NCBI GenBank assembly: GCA_937906475.1 | Contig: CALCZA010000054.1 | Location: 1-64,000 of the forward strand | DNA: 64,000 bases | Reading direction: 5' to 3' | DNA from: an uncultured bacterium | GTDB taxonomy: Bacteria; Planctomycetota; UBA1135; UBA2386 | Part shown: positions 15,749 through 60,369 of the stretch, piece after piece | Numbering within the stretch: position 1 is the first letter of the stretch | How the letters are laid out: every line of letters starts with the position of its first letter | Notes under the pieces: generated by a model | Database searches by the model: none | Seen by the model: only the letters and a program-made list of their open reading frames with translations | Told to the model about the DNA's origin: nothing | Program-made: the position numbers and the translations under genes

Positions 15749-15767
15749 TTTAGAGATATGTACCAGT

Positions 15768-15784
15768 TTGGCACCGCGATTGCT
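15768..15784 (+). promoter_or_regulatory. Sigma-54 (-24/-12) promoter
   Basis: TTGGCAC, five bases, TTGCT: GG at 15770-15771 and GC at 15782-15783 are exactly 10 bp apart, as sigma-54 polymerase requires. Every conserved consensus position matches. Transcription would begin near 15795, just before ATG 15800 and about 30 bases before an in-frame ATG at 15827. The gene for a sigma-54 activator ends about 130 bp upstream. Confidence 0.75.
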
Positions 15785-15799
15785 CTAGTCCCTGCCACG

Positions 15800-17596
15800 A
15801 TGCGGCGACTCACCACAACGAAGCAGATGCTTGGCGCGGGCCTTTTGGTTCAGTTGCTGGCGTTGCCGTTGCTTGGGCAGGCATCTGGGCAGGCCGTTAA
15901 GGGCGCGCCGAAGTTGCTTGACTGCATTGAGGCGCCTTACGCATACGTCGCTCTCGACGGCGCTGCCCTCGGAAGCGATGTAATCGGAAGCGATGGTAAG
16001 AGCGGCAGCACCGTTCAGAAGCTGCTCGCCGACCCTTCGCTTGATGCGATCTTTGGTGGTGGCGATGCTGCCGCTGCTCAAAGCAGTTCGCGTCAGTCGC
16101 TGTCGCTCGTGCGCAGCATGTTGCGACGCGGTGCTAGCGAACTCGAGTTGGCGATGACGGGCATCGTGGCTCGCAAGGGCCAGCCGTTGTTGGTGCTTCG
16201 CGCGCGCCTCCGCCAAGACGCTGCCAACGCGTTGCGTCTCAGTCTCGAAGGTGCTGCTAGCGTCGCGGTGCCGTACCGTCAACTCGGCGGTCACCAAACC
16301 TACACGATGCCTTCGAGCAGTCGTGGGCGGCGCCCTGGAGCCGGCGACGTCGTCGAAATCGCATTGATCGGCAACGACCTCGTTGTCGCCAACGACACTT
16401 TAGCAATGCGCGAAGTGCTCGTGCCAGTACCCAACCGGACCGGCGTGCAGCCGGCTCGAAAAGTGTTGTCATCCGACCCACGCTTTAACGCGCTCCGCAA
16501 GCGCCTGGATGTGCCGGCAGGTTCGTTGATCGCCTACGGTGATTGGCAGCGACTTGGCCGTCGGCTGGAGTCCTACCTAGGTAGTGTGCCAACTCAGTTG
16601 TTGAACTCCAGTGGGCTCGGATCTGCCCGCTCGGTCATGATGACGCTGGCACCTGCTAAGCAGGATTTCGCAGCGACGTTGTTGCTCGACTTTGAGCTTT
16701 CGAATGCTGCTGCTGGCCGTGGTGCTGCTGGCCGTGGTGTTGTTGGCCGTGGTGTTGTTGGTCAGCAAGAGGGTGCCGGCATCGATGGTTGGTTTGCCGC
16801 GACCGAACCGGTCTCCGCCAAGACCTTGCTGCGCGAATTGCCGCGCTCGGGGTTGGGTGGAATGGTTCTTTCCGTGGACTTGGCGGCTGTTGCCGACTGT
16901 TCCCCGCGTAGCGCGTGCATGGTCTGGGACCTGCGTGATGCGTATAGCACGTTTGGCTTGAGCTACGAGCGCAACGTGCTCGCTCGGTTGGCCTCGCGCG
17001 GCACGGTGCAGTTGCATTTCGATCCTGCTGCTAGTAGCGCGAACAGCACCAACGAAGCCTCTAAAGAAACAGCGGCCGGTGGCGACATTGCCGTCGCTTC
17101 GGTGTCCCCTGTTTATAGCGTGCGTGCCAACAGTCGCACCGCCGCCGAAGACCTCTTCAGCGACATGCGTCGAGTGGTCACCAAGACGACTTTTGGTGAG
17201 TTCCTCACGGTCAAGGATGCCAAGGGTAAGCGCCTTACGGACGTCATCCATCTACACGGCAAGAAGGGCCAGTTGTCCGCCTACGTATGCGTTAGCGGCG
17301 ACTCCGTCTTGCTTGCCGAAGACCAAGACACGCTCGTGCAAGTGCATCAAGAACTGCGTCGCAGCAAGCCACGCAGTCGTCGCGATCAAATCGCGGGCAA
17401 AGCAATTAAAGCGATTGGCGGTGACCGCGTCGCAGGTCTGTTTGACCTCGATCTCGATCCGCTGTTTCAACGCATCACGTCGGCGCTGCATGGCGTTGAT
17501 CTTTCTTCTCTTCCGAAGCGCCACATTGGTTATCTCGACACGGATCGTCAGGTAGATGGAGTTGTGGTGCGCATCCGGGTGTTGTCATCGAAGTGA
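15800..17596 (+). CDS. Large secreted protein of unknown function
   Basis: About 598 residues. The first 30 form a signal peptide: charged start, then a Leu-rich core, and cleavage likely after a QASGQA segment. The rest alternates beta-strand and helix stretches with no motif I know; repeated AYVALDG/GLFDLDLDP-like statements and repeated MRRV.. segments suggest an internal duplication. A Gly-Arg-Gly-Ala/Val tandem repeat lies at about residues 304-321. ATG 15800 is chosen over ATG 15758 because the signal peptide starts there and the sigma-54 promoter would sit inside the longer frame; ATG 15827 is also possible. Expression is probably sigma-54 dependent. Confidence 0.7.
   Translation: MRRLTTTKQMLGAGLLVQLLALPLLGQASGQAVKGAPKLLDCIEAPYAYVALDGAALGSDVIGSDGKSGSTVQKLLADPSLDAIFGGGDAAAAQSSSRQSLSLVRSMLRRGASELELAMTGIVARKGQPLLVLRARLRQDAANALRLSLEGAASVAVPYRQLGGHQTYTMPSSSRGRRPGAGDVVEIALIGNDLVVANDTLAMREVLVPVPNRTGVQPARKVLSSDPRFNALRKRLDVPAGSLIAYGDWQRLGRRLESYLGSVPTQLLNSSGLGSARSVMMTLAPAKQDFAATLLLDFELSNAAAGRGAAGRGVVGRGVVGQQEGAGIDGWFAATEPVSAKTLLRELPRSGLGGMVLSVDLAAVADCSPRSACMVWDLRDAYSTFGLSYERNVLARLASRGTVQLHFDPAASSANSTNEASKETAAGGDIAVASVSPVYSVRANSRTAAEDLFSDMRRVVTKTTFGEFLTVKDAKGKRLTDVIHLHGKKGQLSAYVCVSGDSVLLAEDQDTLVQVHQELRRSKPRSRRDQIAGKAIKAIGGDRVAGLFDLDLDPLFQRITSALHGVDLSSLPKRHIGYLDTDRQVDGVVVRIRVLSSK
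16709..16762 (+). repeat. 15-bp tandem repeat inside the secreted protein gene
   Basis: About 3.6 copies of a 15-bp unit, in frame, encoding five-residue units of the form AAGRG then VVGRG. Two alternating versions (GCTGCT and GTTGTT) show recent copying. Length variation between strains would change the protein without a frameshift. Confidence 0.8.
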
Positions 17597-17705
17597 TTTC
17601 ATGTCGGGCTGTGTAGTCCGACGTAGTCCGCTCGTAGCAACACACGTTCTTTAACAGTTCAACAGTCTACGGTGAGGATCGACGCTTGGGCGTCGTCTCT
17701 TTGCC

Positions 17706-17807
17706 GCGGATGCATGGGTGTCAAACAGTCTCGGGCCGACCTATTTACTTGGGGCAGGCAAGGTCGACCTGAGCCTTTCGCGTGTGTTGCGCGGGCCATG
17801 CATCCGC
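17706..17807 (+). ncRNA. Structured RNA element, copy 1 (three-way junction)
   Basis: Helix P1 pairs 17706-17717 with 17796-17807 (12 bp, perfect). P2 pairs 17730-17742 with 17761-17773 (13 positions, one mismatch, one G-U), capped by an 18-nt loop at 17743-17760 that ends TACTTGGGGCAGGCA. P3 is 17779-17783 with 17789-17793, loop GTGTT. The layout equals copy 2 downstream, with paired changes in P1 and P2. No known riboswitch consensus that I know fits. It could be a cis-regulatory leader of lon or an independent RNA. Confidence 0.7.
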
Positions 17808-17816
17808 ATCTTTACA

Positions 17817-17919
17817 GGGCGCATGGGTCATTTTGTCCCGTGCCGTCGTTCCGAATACTTGGGGCAGGCAGGAACGATGGTGTGGAACGCGTGGTGTCAC
17901 GCGAATGGTCCATGCGCCC
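17817..17919 (+). ncRNA. Structured RNA element, copy 2 (three-way junction)
   Basis: P1 pairs 17817-17832 with 17904-17919 (16 bp including two G-U pairs). P2 pairs 17838-17852 with 17871-17885 (15 bp, four G-U pairs, no mismatch), capped by the 18-nt loop 17853-17870 whose last 15 bases are identical to copy 1. P3 pairs 17888-17893 with 17898-17903, loop GTGT. The G-U pairs would be A-C mismatches if the other strand were transcribed, so the RNA runs rightward, toward lon. Nine bases separate it from copy 1. Confidence 0.75.
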
Positions 17920-18073
17920 ACATTTTTGTACTGAGAGTTTGTTTGCCGGCGACGGCCAGGATTGCTTGGCTAGCCGCCAATTGGGGCGAAGTCGGCCCGC
18001 ACTAGGGCGGTACTAGGCAAGCACTCTTGCGGTTGCACTCGTTTTTTGCCGAGCGTGGTCTACAACGATCAGC
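17920..18073 (+). other. Remainder of the lon leader region
   Basis: 154 bp between the tandem RNA elements and the lon ATG. It holds an imperfect hairpin at 17948-17978, and a GCCC (17995-17998) that can pair with either GGGC just upstream (17984-17987) or GGGC just downstream (18005-18008), a mutually exclusive choice. A T6 run at 18044-18049 follows only a weak 5-bp hairpin, so termination there is doubtful. No good Shine-Dalgarno precedes the ATG. The 109 bp before copy 1 (17597-17705) show nothing recognisable. Confidence 0.4.
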
Positions 18074-20959
18074 ATGCTCGACGGCCGCCCCAATGATCGT
18101 GACGCAGATCCCGACGGAATCCCCACGGATGGTGGGTCGGCCGATGCGGGCCAGTCGAATGTCTTCAGCGAAGCCGGATCCGGTTCGGGCAACTCCGATG
18201 GAGCGAGCGGCGGCAGCGATGCGTTTGGCGATGGCACGACCGATAACTCAGGAACTGGAGGCCCAGATGCCGATGCCCCAGGATCCGGTGACTCGGGCGA
18301 CTCTGGCGACTCGGGCGACTCCGGTGACTCGGGCGACTCCGGTGACTCGGGTGACGATAATTCTGGCGGCAGTGTTTCCGACGAAGACATCTTCTTCGGC
18401 GAGAAGGCCGGTGATCACGACGGACCATCGTTGGTGATTGACGACGGCAAGAGCCATAACTCCGTCGTCGTGCAGGACACGCTGCCTGACACGATGTTCG
18501 CGTTCCCGCTGCAGAAGTCGGTGCCGTTCCCGAACCTGATGATGCCGCTGCTGCTCGATTCGCAGCAGGCGAAGGACGTCGTCGCCAAGGCTGAAGCGCA
18601 CAACGGCTACGTGTTCTTGGTGCTTCAACGTGACCCGGAGGCCGAGGTCAAGAAGATCGCCGAGTTGCACGAGGTCGGCGTGATTACGCGCATCGTCAAA
18701 ACCCTGAAGCTGCCGGACGGCACTATGTCGGCGATGACGCAAGGGGCGCGCCGCGCCAAGCGCGTCAAGGTCATACGCGAGCAACCGCACCTGGTCGTTC
18801 GCGTGAAGCAGTTGGTTGAGATCCCGGCGCAGGGAGATCGCGCGGAGTCGTTGTTCCGCTTGTTGCAAAAGCAACTGCAGGAACTCGCGGCGCTGCAAGA
18901 GCACGTCGACCCAGGCTTCGCAACGGCGTTGCTCAATGTCGAAGATCCCGGCCAGCTAGCTGACTTCTCGGCGGGCATTGTACGCAAGGTCGTGGATCGC
19001 CAGCGTCTGCTGGCGGAAGCAGATGTCGGCAAGCGCTGCGAACTCGCACTGCAGTTTGCGATGGCCGAGAGCGAGTTAGCGGCGCTCGACCAGAAGATCC
19101 AAGAAGAGATGCGGCAGAAGGCAGAGAAGGCGCAGAAGGACTATTTCCTGCGCGAGCAACTGAAGATCATTCGTCGCGAACTCGGCGAAGAAGAGGATCC
19201 ACGTGCGATGGAATTGGCGCGTCTTACGAAGGCCGTTGCCGACGCCAACATGCCCGACGACGCCAAGAGTCGGGCCGACGAAGAACTGACCCGTTTGCAA
19301 ACGACCCCGGTGGAATCAGGGGAATACAGCGTCATCCGCAACTACCTCGACTGGTTGGTGGCATTGCCGTGGTCGAAGTCAACCCGGGATCATACTGACC
19401 TGGCCCGCGCGGGCCGCGTTCTGCGCGACGACCACTACGGCCTCGATGAGGTTAAAGAACGCATTCTCGAGTTCCTCGCCGTGCGTAAATTGCGTCCGGG
19501 CCAGGGCGGGTCGATCCTGTGCTTCAGCGGTCCTCCCGGCGTCGGCAAGACGAGTCTCGGCCGGAGCATTGCGCGCGCGATGGGTCGCAAGTTCTTCCGC
19601 TTCTCGTTGGGCGGCATGCGCGACGAAGCGGAGATCAAGGGGCATCGGCGCACCTATGTCGGTGCGTTGCCGGGTCGCATCCTGCAAGGCCTGAAGACTT
19701 GCGGCAGCAACAATCCGGTGATGCTGCTCGATGAGATCGATAAACTCGGCAGCGACTTCCGCGGTGACCCGAGTTCGGCGTTGCTCGAGGTGCTCGATCC
19801 CGAGCAGAACCACAACTTTCAGGACCACTATCTCGACGTGCCGTTCGACTTGTCGAAGGTCATGTTCTTGGCGACCGCGAACGTCTTGTCGGCGATCCCT
19901 GAACCGCTGCGGGATCGCATGGAGATCCTTGAGATTCCCGGCTACTTGGTCGAGGAGAAGGTCGAGATTGCTCGTCGTCACCTGTTGCCCAAGCAGATCG
20001 AACGGCACGGACTGACGAGCAGCAACCTGTCGATCACCCTGCCTGTCTGGCAGCGTATCGTGCCGAACTACACGCGCGAAGCGGGCGTGCGCGGCCTCGA
20101 TAAAGTCATTAGCCGTTTGTGCCGCAAGGTCGCGCGCCAAGTCGCCCGCGGCAAGAAGGGCCCGGCGCGCCTGAGTCTGTCGGAGATGGAGCACTTGCTC
20201 GGTCGGGCCCGCTTCAAGGCGGACGAACGCCGTAAGAAGCGCTTGCCTGGCGTTGTGCAAGGCCTGGCGTGGACGCCCTTCGGCGGCGATGTGCTTTACA
20301 TCGAGGCGGTGCGCAGTCAGGGCAAGCCTACGTTACAGTTGACCGGCAGCCTTGGCGATGTCATGAGTGAGTCGGCGCGCGTGGCTTTGAGCTATCTGCG
20401 CAGTCGCCACAAGCGTTTCGGAATCGACCTGGCGCGCCTCGACAACAGCAACCTGCACTTGCACTTCCCGAGCGGTGCGATCCCGAAGGATGGACCGTCG
20501 GCTGGCATTGCGATCGCTTGCGCGTTCTTGTCATCGTTGACTGATCAGCCTGTGCCGACCGATATCGCGATGACCGGCGAGTTGACGGTTGTTGGTGAAG
20601 TGCTACCGATTGGTGGCGTGCGCGAGAAGGTTCTCGCGGCGAAGAACTTTGGCCTGCAACGCGTGCTGTTGCCGAAGGGTAACGAACCAGATGCCAAGGA
20701 ACTGAAGCGCGAGTTGGTGCGCGGTTTGAAGATCTACTTCGTCGAGCATTTTGATGAGGTGTTCGACATCGTCTTCGGTGGTGGGGGAGCGCCACGCTCG
20801 AAGTCGCGACGGCGCGGTGCCAAGCCAGTCGCGAAGAAGACCGCGAAGAAGCCGGCGAAGAAGCCGGCGAAGAAGACCGCGAAGAAGCCGGTGGCGAGAA
20901 AGGCCAAGAAGGCCGCGAAGAAGACTAAGAAGTCTTTGTCTAAGTCGAAGTCCGCATGA
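18074..20959 (+). CDS. lon: Lon protease with acidic repeat head and lysine-rich tail
   Basis: A 961-residue ATP-dependent protease that degrades damaged and regulatory proteins in the cytoplasm. The Lon substrate domain begins near residue 138, the AAA+ domain has Walker A GPPGVGKT (486-493) and Walker B VMLLDEIDK, and the protease has the catalytic dyad Ser809 (PKDGPSAG) and Lys852 (GVREKVLAA), so it should be active. Two additions are unusual: residues 1-137 are acidic and low-complexity with seven GDS units (72-92), and about 56 residues at the end are basic with KKPAKK/KKTAKK units, 20 Lys in the last 46 residues, like histone H1 tails. No closer in-frame start gives a better N-terminus. 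Preceded by a structured RNA leader. Confidence 0.95.
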   Translation: MLDGRPNDRDADPDGIPTDGGSADAGQSNVFSEAGSGSGNSDGASGGSDAFGDGTTDNSGTGGPDADAPGSGDSGDSGDSGDSGDSGDSGDSGDDNSGGSVSDEDIFFGEKAGDHDGPSLVIDDGKSHNSVVVQDTLPDTMFAFPLQKSVPFPNLMMPLLLDSQQAKDVVAKAEAHNGYVFLVLQRDPEAEVKKIAELHEVGVITRIVKTLKLPDGTMSAMTQGARRAKRVKVIREQPHLVVRVKQLVEIPAQGDRAESLFRLLQKQLQELAALQEHVDPGFATALLNVEDPGQLADFSAGIVRKVVDRQRLLAEADVGKRCELALQFAMAESELAALDQKIQEEMRQKAEKAQKDYFLREQLKIIRRELGEEEDPRAMELARLTKAVADANMPDDAKSRADEELTRLQTTPVESGEYSVIRNYLDWLVALPWSKSTRDHTDLARAGRVLRDDHYGLDEVKERILEFLAVRKLRPGQGGSILCFSGPPGVGKTSLGRSIARAMGRKFFRFSLGGMRDEAEIKGHRRTYVGALPGRILQGLKTCGSNNPVMLLDEIDKLGSDFRGDPSSALLEVLDPEQNHNFQDHYLDVPFDLSKVMFLATANVLSAIPEPLRDRMEILEIPGYLVEEKVEIARRHLLPKQIERHGLTSSNLSITLPVWQRIVPNYTREAGVRGLDKVISRLCRKVARQVARGKKGPARLSLSEMEHLLGRARFKADERRKKRLPGVVQGLAWTPFGGDVLYIEAVRSQGKPTLQLTGSLGDVMSESARVALSYLRSRHKRFGIDLARLDNSNLHLHFPSGAIPKDGPSAGIAIACAFLSSLTDQPVPTDIAMTGELTVVGEVLPIGGVREKVLAAKNFGLQRVLLPKGNEPDAKELKRELVRGLKIYFVEHFDEVFDIVFGGGGAPRSKSRRRGAKPVAKKTAKKPAKKPAKKTAKKPVARKAKKAAKKTKKSLSKSKSA
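18287..18349 (+). repeat. 9-bp tandem repeat encoding (Gly-Asp-Ser)7
   Basis: Seven in-frame 9-bp units (GGC/GGT GAC TCG/TCT/TCC) in the acidic head of Lon. Third-base variation between units indicates that the reading frame is maintained. Slippage here would change protein length in steps of three residues. Confidence 0.85.
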
Positions 20960-22522: not shown

Positions 22523-23039
22523 CCAGCGCGCGTCCTGGCGGGGCCGATTGCGGAGTCGGAGTCCGTTTGTCTCCCGCAAGTTTCGAGCCACTTCGAGCCA
22601 CTTCGAGTGACTCATGAATGCAGCCAGGGCTGGAGGCTCGAACGACACGGGTGGTTCCATTCTTGTTCTCTCAACGGTCGCTTGTAGCACCCACGATGGC
22701 CCAGTCAGCCGGCGCTTGGCGATCCGCGACCAGGTGCTCGAACTGTGCTCCGTCTGGCGCGGATTGCTGCCAGGCGGCATGATGGCTCACCCCGGCCGTT
22801 CGCGGCTGGGTTGCCCCGGCGGTCATTTGTTTGCCTGCCCCGGCCGCTGGGGCATTTACTTTTTCTGCGCACACCGAGGCCTGAAGTCTCGATCCCGAGA
22901 GCCTCGATCCTGAGCGTCTCGTCCCGGGTCGACATCCTATGCCGACACTGCAGGGGGGATTCCTGCGCAGAATGCATCGCTGGCCACATCCAATCTGGAC
23001 CGGACCACTGCGCACCGGCACGATGTTGGCCGCCGCACA
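22523..23039. other. 517-bp non-coding stretch with short repeats
   Basis: No supportable gene. It holds a 10-bp direct repeat of CGAGCCACTT (around 22583-22604), several CTCGATCC/CTCGTCCC words around 22890-22925, GC-rich hairpins, and one terminator-like hairpin (listed separately). Short open frames on both strands lack start signals and codon pattern. The final part probably carries the promoter of the gene at 23040. Confidence 0.4.
22836..22866 (+). terminator. Possible intrinsic terminator
   Basis: TGCCCC / GGGGCA stem (6 bp, 7-nt loop) at 22836-22854, followed by TTTACTTTTTCT. The distance from the SUFU gene stop is about 310 bp, so its source transcript is uncertain. Confidence 0.4.
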
Positions 23040-60181: not shown

Positions 60182-60369
60182 GGCCCGATCTGCCGGATTG
60201 GGGGCGCACCGAGGCGCTCGCAGGCAGTTCCGGAGCAATATGACACCTCTCCCCGGAGAAATCTGGGGCAGGTTCCGGGTCGACAAGCCCTGCGGATCCT
60301 TGCACAGAAGACGGTCAGGCGGTTTCATCGCTGCCCCGCTTTGTGGCTTGAAGACGCCGGGAAGCATAT

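What the first reader, a model, noticed from the sequence alone, without database searches (positions are those of the whole stretch)
17706..17919. Tandem covarying three-way-junction RNA elements upstream of lon
Seen directly: two neighbouring copies fold alike (P1 closing stem, P2 hairpin with an 18-nt loop, P3 hairpin with GTGT(T) loop). The 15-base loop end TACTTGGGGCAGGCA is identical, but the stems differ with paired changes: A-U to G-C and U-A to C-G in P1, and three double changes near the P2 loop. Copy 2 has six G-U pairs and no mismatch in 31 pairs; on the other strand these would be A-C mismatches, so RNA toward lon is implied. A conserved loop with compensated stems is what ligand-binding or protein-binding RNA looks like. 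Known tandem riboswitches (glycine, mini-ykkC) do not share these sequences as far as I know. Novelty is inferred.
Basis: partly seen in the sequence, partly recalled or inferred. Interest (0 to 1): 0.88.

Follow-up and report, generated by a model that had tools for sequence, protein, structure and literature searches.

The report
New paired-module noncoding RNA in Planctomycetota
Between two genes of an uncultured Planctomycetota bacterium lies a previously uncatalogued structured RNA built of two similar folded modules that show the same 10-letter loop; related genera keep its shape through matched mutations, which shows that it is a real RNA, but it is probably an independent RNA rather than a switch for the neighbouring lon protease gene.

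Summary
Two three-way-junction modules (17706-17807 and 17817-17919) carry the identical loop end TACTTGGGGCAGGCA and match no Rfam 15 family. A covariance model from hand-aligned seeds finds the element in 25 of 34 genomes of the window's GTDB family, usually two copies about 10 nt apart at one locus. It finds none in over 400 other genomes of the order and phylum. In 41 copies, 27 of 29 base pairs show compensatory double changes (93.6% of cells paired; controls 75% shuffled, at most 46% slid). The loop GGGGCAGGCA is nearly invariant. This is a real, new, family-restricted structured RNA.

The lon reading is weakened. In nine genomes glpK is the next gene, in two others lon is 5-7 kb away, and in 18 of 24 genomes lon has a conserved TA[CG]AA promoter-like box directly before its ATG, also behind glpK. 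The RNA usually ends in a U-tract and often follows a boxA-like motif. Best reading: a stand-alone or 3'UTR-derived, intrinsically terminated ncRNA that presents two identical loops to a partner, probably a protein. Partner and transcription are untested. A family-wide antisense loop partner was not found.

The parts
17706..17807 (+). Copy 1: three-way junction RNA module (P1 17706-17717/17796-17807, P2 17727-17776, P3 17777-17795)
   Evidence: (R1, 73.4 bits)
17751..17760 (+). Invariant loop core GGGGCAGGCA of copy 1, inside the 18-nt P2 loop 17743-17760
   Evidence: 8 of 10 positions invariant in 42 hairpins
17808..17816 (+). Pyrimidine/U-containing linker between the copies (weak terminator-like tract)
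17817..17919 (+). Copy 2: three-way junction RNA module (P1 17817-17833/17903-17919, P2 17835-17888, P3 17889-17902)
   Evidence: (R1, 61.2 bits)
17861..17870 (+). Invariant loop core GGGGCAGGCA of copy 2, inside the 18-nt P2 loop 17853-17870
17920..17928 (+). U-tract (ACATTTTTG) right after P1 of copy 2: probable intrinsic terminator / RNA 3' end
   Evidence: 17 of 25 genomes have >=5 T in 10 nt; background 2.7%
17671..17705 (+). Small G+C-rich hairpin abutting copy 1; a hairpin-like stretch is also present there in relatives, sequence variable
17645..17656 (+). boxA-like motif CGTTCTTTAACA (YGYTCTTT in 13 of 26 relatives, background 0.003 per 160 nt)
15758..17596 (+). Upstream gene (612 aa, no Pfam match, called DUF612 here); upstream neighbour in most but not all genomes
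18061..18066 (+). TACAAC: promoter-like (-10-type) box conserved directly before the lon ATG; suggests lon has its own, leaderless-type start
   Evidence: 18 of 24 genomes, background 0.4%
18074..20959 (+). lon protease ORF (context, not part of the RNA)

Best explanation
The element is a family-specific, structured noncoding RNA of about 200-280 nt made of two homologous modules. Each module is a closed three-way junction whose P2 hairpin presents the same single-stranded loop GGGGCAGGCA; P1 of the second module plus a U-tract ends the RNA. It works as a discrete, intrinsically terminated transcript, either from its own promoter or cut from the 3' end of the upstream gene's mRNA. It acts in trans, with the two identical loops bound by the same partner, most likely a dimeric or multivalent RNA-binding protein that it sequesters or scaffolds. 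Shown: structure, strand, conservation, one locus per genome, U-tract, independence from either neighbouring gene. Inferred: transcription, trans action and the protein partner.
For: Covariation: 27 of 29 pairs have double changes, with 0 of 500 shuffles reaching any observed measure. Hits in 25 of 34 genomes of the family, nearly always two copies at one locus, and hairpin-only hits confined to that locus apart from G014, where the single hairpin lies before glpK, which argues against a riboswitch regulon. The loop is invariant while stems change. Copy number varies 1 to 4 with the same loop. A U-tract follows the last module. The RNA persists without DUF612 (G004, G011, G013, G023) and without adjacent lon (G010, G016). 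lon and several glpK genes have promoter-like boxes directly before their ATGs. A boxA-like motif lies upstream in about half the genomes.
Against: No transcript data exist. No promoter was found for the RNA, and alignment of the upstream DNA showed no conserved promoter. No partner was found. glpK or lon starts within about 40-150 nt of the RNA in most genomes, so read-through leadership is not excluded. The terminator U-tract is poor in several genomes.
Confidence: 0.5

Rival explanations
1. Cis-acting 5' leader of lon (or of glpK-lon): the tandem modules are an attenuator or riboswitch in which binding to the loops stabilises P1 plus U-tract and stops transcription into the gene.
For: lon, directly or behind glpK, follows on the same strand in most genomes; the RNA stays with lon when DUF612 is lost; glpK starts 38 nt after the RNA in G007 and G021; P1 plus U-tract resembles an expression platform.
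Against: lon has its own conserved promoter-like box before its ATG, also when glpK intervenes. In G010 the next gene is convergent and in G016 lon is 5.4 kb away. There is one locus per genome only. No conserved alternative pairing was seen.
Confidence: 0.22
2. 3' end element of the upstream gene: tandem terminators or a 3'UTR stabiliser of the DUF612 mRNA, with the loop bound by a termination or processing factor.
For: The element starts about 60-140 nt after the DUF612 stop in most genomes; the single-hairpin form in G016 looks like a plain terminator with the same loop; the boxA-like motif lies between the stop codon and the element.
Against: The element persists where DUF612 is absent (G004, G011, G013, G023, G014) behind unrelated genes. 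An ordinary terminator needs neither a three-way junction nor an invariant loop.
Confidence: 0.2
3. Base-pairing sRNA whose loops pair with a complementary RNA (UGCCUGCCCC), for example a kissing-loop partner.
For: An exact 10-nt complement lies in the loop of a terminator-like hairpin about 5 kb downstream in G000 (22813-22853) and at the matching place in G003.
Against: Absent at that place in G002, G001 and the other genera. In six further genomes the complement sites that were read lie mostly in long open frames and form no conserved hairpin or orthologous set.
Confidence: 0.07
4. DNA-level or mobile repeat (REP-like) with no RNA function.
For: It is an imperfect tandem repeat with palindromic stems.
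Against: Confined to one orthologous locus per genome; strand-biased G-U pairing and compensatory changes; invariant asymmetric loop.
Confidence: 0.01

Closest known systems
pan motif (Weinberg et al. 2010, PMC2864571)
   Same: Small stem elements that mostly occur in tandem and are read by its authors as a dimeric protein-binding site.
   Different: pan is a simple stem with bulged As upstream of pantothenate genes in three phyla; here the units are three-way junctions with a conserved apical loop, one locus per genome, in one family, and no Rfam match.
CsrB/RsmZ-type sponge RNAs
   Same: Several hairpins present the same single-stranded motif, ending in a terminator; copy number varies (comparison from own knowledge).
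   Different: The Csr code is GGA in loops; the loop core here is GGGGCAGGCA without GGA, and no Rfam match.
6C RNA of Actinobacteria
   Same: Stand-alone RNA with two hairpins bearing identical homogeneous loops (own knowledge).
   Different: 6C loops are C-rich; these are G-rich, inside three-way junctions; no Rfam match.
Tandem glycine and mini-ykkC (guanidine-II) riboswitches
   Same: Two adjacent similar modules with conserved elements.
   Different: No Rfam match; no gene regulon; adjacent genes have their own promoter-like boxes.
Intrinsic terminator hairpins
   Same: G+C-rich stem followed by a U-tract.
   Different: Elaborate covarying three-way junction and invariant 10-nt loop.

Membership tests
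Structured bacterial ncRNA (Rfam-type candidate) | Helices supported by compensatory changes in homologues | tested here: met
   27/29 pairs; shuffled and slid controls clearly lower; the alignment was fitted to the model, so it leans towards it
Any of 4227 Rfam 15 families | Score above or near the gathering threshold | tested here: not met
   (E up to 5) and 5: nothing over 17600-18000
Glycine riboswitch / mini-ykkC | Match to the family covariance model | tested here: not met
Riboswitch in general | Lies in the 5' leader of the gene it controls, often several genes of one pathway per genome | tested here: inconclusive
   one locus per genome, downstream gene varies, lon/glpK have own promoter-like boxes; read-through not excluded
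Riboswitch in general | Direct ligand binding | not testable with these tools
   needs in-line probing
Csr/Rsm sponge RNA | Multiple GGA motifs in hairpin loops | tested here: not met
   loop core GGGGCAGGCA invariant, copy 1 loop has no GGA
pan motif | Match to the family model | tested here: not met
   no match, assuming the motif is in Rfam 15 (not verified); downstream genes are lon/glpK
Intrinsic terminator | G+C-rich stem followed by U-tract | tested here: met
   17/25 genomes with >=5 T in 10 nt after the last P1, background 2.7%
Rhodopirellula-1 motif (Weinberg 2010) | Sequence/structure of that motif | not tested
   its alignment is in supplements not held; it is reported in Proteobacteria and Planctomycetes, whereas R1 finds this RNA only in one family

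The most novel reading that the evidence does not exclude
The RNA is the sponge or scaffold of a still unknown global RNA-binding regulator of this planctomycete family, with recognition code GGGGCAGGCA in a hairpin loop: a functional analogue of CsrB/6S-type RNAs with a different code and partner.
Probability: 0.3. Interest if true: 0.8.

Novelty: new variant of a known kind. Interest (0 to 1): 0.62.

Why it matters
Few noncoding RNAs are described in Planctomycetota (a 2022 survey counts 8 annotated sRNAs for the whole PVC group, PMC9029176). This one is supported by strong covariation across at least 12 genera, has a nearly invariant loop that invites a pulldown, and would give a handle on post-transcriptional regulation in bacteria for which none is known to me.

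Tried and rejected
Rfam at gathering and E<=5 thresholds: no match. Dispersed regulon: a hairpin-only model finds no sites away from this locus except the glpK-adjacent single hairpin of G014; a lookalike at 60246-60282 did not score and is treated as chance. Phylum-wide search: no hit outside the family (stricter filters, so weak relatives could be missed). Antisense loop partner: found only in G000 and G003. Coding function of the loop: rejected because all positions, wobble ones included, are conserved while the flanking stems vary in length. rRNA boxA comparison in the same genome: no 16S gene in this assembly. A mini-hairpin inside the loop (CUUG/CAGG in the MFE): not supported, since the 5' side varies while CAGG is invariant. 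A pairing between loop and 23S rRNA (8 nt, from memory) was considered and set aside as not significant. A viral-contig search was started with a wrong frame and dropped as irrelevant.

Full report
What is there. The two copies exist as described, with the identical 15-nt loop end, and fold as three-way junctions. Copy 1 is 17706-17807 and copy 2 is 17817-17919, 9 nt apart, on the strand of lon. The region is far more stable than shuffled sequence (z -4.1). No Rfam family matches.

Relatives. The exact loop was found in two congeneric genomes, both upstream of lon, and a DNA search showed related pairs in other genera of the family. A covariance model from nine hand-aligned seeds found the element in 25 of 34 genomes of the family and in none of 117 genomes from other families of the order, nor outside the family in a phylum sample of 392 genomes. 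Most genomes have exactly two copies. Others have one (G013, G004), one plus a reduced hairpin (G008, G022), an extra hairpin (G009, G024), or only short hairpins with the same loop: four in G010, one in G016 and one in G014. G002, of the same genus, keeps copy 2 but has a degenerate copy 1.

Structure. On 41 aligned copies, 93.6% of cells pair (shuffled 74.8%, slid 24-46%), and 27 of 29 pairs show changes on both sides. The alignment was fitted to the model, which inflates the percentage, but the compensatory pair types (for example the fourth pair of P1: A-U in 20, G-C in 20) are visible by eye. The loop core GGGGCAGGCA is almost invariant (8 positions invariant in 42 hairpins). Copies 1 of different genomes are 71% alike and copies 2 60%, while copies 1 and 2 of different genomes are 57% alike, so the duplication is older than most of the species (inference).

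Context. The order is NifU - sigma-54 activator - DUF612 - RNA - (glpK) - lon - nth. Three facts argue against a lon leader. First, glpK is the next gene in nine genomes (eight, G014; lon was seen behind it in six, the other contigs end first), and in G010 and G016 lon is 7 and 5 kb away. Second, 18 of 24 lon genes have TA[CG]AA within 18 nt of the ATG (background 0.4%), often with CCCTTT about 20 nt further up, the layout of a leaderless promoter, and this is present behind glpK as well. Several glpK genes have a similar box (AGAATG, GACAAT). Third, there is only one locus per genome. The RNA also survives loss of DUF612 (G004, G011, G013, G023), so it belongs to neither neighbour. A U-rich tract follows the last module in 17 of 25 genomes (background 2.7%) and a weaker pyrimidine tract follows the first. 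A boxA-like YGYTCTTT lies 50-140 nt upstream in 13 of 26 genomes (background 0.003 per 160 nt). Nus factors bind boxA (PMC5725501), but its role here is untested, and in some genomes it could be the U-tract of a DUF612 terminator.

Mechanism. I read it as a discrete terminated RNA with two identical binding loops. Conserved sequence in the loop with freely changing stems means that the loop is what is recognised. Two or more identical loops in fixed register suggest a dimeric or multivalent protein, as was argued for the tandem pan motif (PMC2864571). A base-pairing partner was tested. An exact complement sits in a terminator loop at 22813-22853 and at the matching place in G003, but not in other genomes, so it is at most a two-species peculiarity.

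Limits. All genomes are drafts (mostly MAGs). No expression data could be reached. The phylum-wide searches used stricter filters. The promoter of the RNA was not found.

Noticed in passing
window 22813-22853 (+): Terminator-like hairpin whose loop TGCCTGCCCC is an exact 10-nt complement of the RNA's loop; also at the orthologous place in G003, not in G002, G001 or other genera.
   Followed up: yes
window 18050-18076 and relatives: lon is preceded by a conserved CCCTTT-about 20 nt-TACAA(C)-6 to 8 nt-ATG layout across the family, suggesting leaderless lon mRNA; glpK shows a similar box (AGAATG/GACAAT before ATG).
   Followed up: partly
window 18074-20959: This Lon has an acidic GDSGDSGDS-rich N-terminal extension and a lysine/alanine-rich, histone H1-like C-terminal tail (AKKTAKKPAKK...).
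   Followed up: no
window 60246-60282 (+): Intergenic hairpin CCCCGG-AGAAATCTGGGGCAGGTT-CCGGG upstream of a tRNA gene resembles the RNA's loop, but did not score with the hairpin model.
   Followed up: partly
L365 (G020:C20:150701-151310): TGCCTGCCCC stands just before a strong terminator (AGCCCGCGAGGTCGTTTGACCTCGCGGGCTTTTT) in G020; single occurrence.
   Followed up: no
window 15758-17596: 612-aa protein without any Pfam match, conserved in the family and usually directly upstream of the RNA.
   Followed up: no
L054 (G022) and L058 (G008): The second module is reduced to one long hairpin with loop GTTGTCGGGCAGGC before a U-tract, an apparent loss of P3.
   Followed up: no
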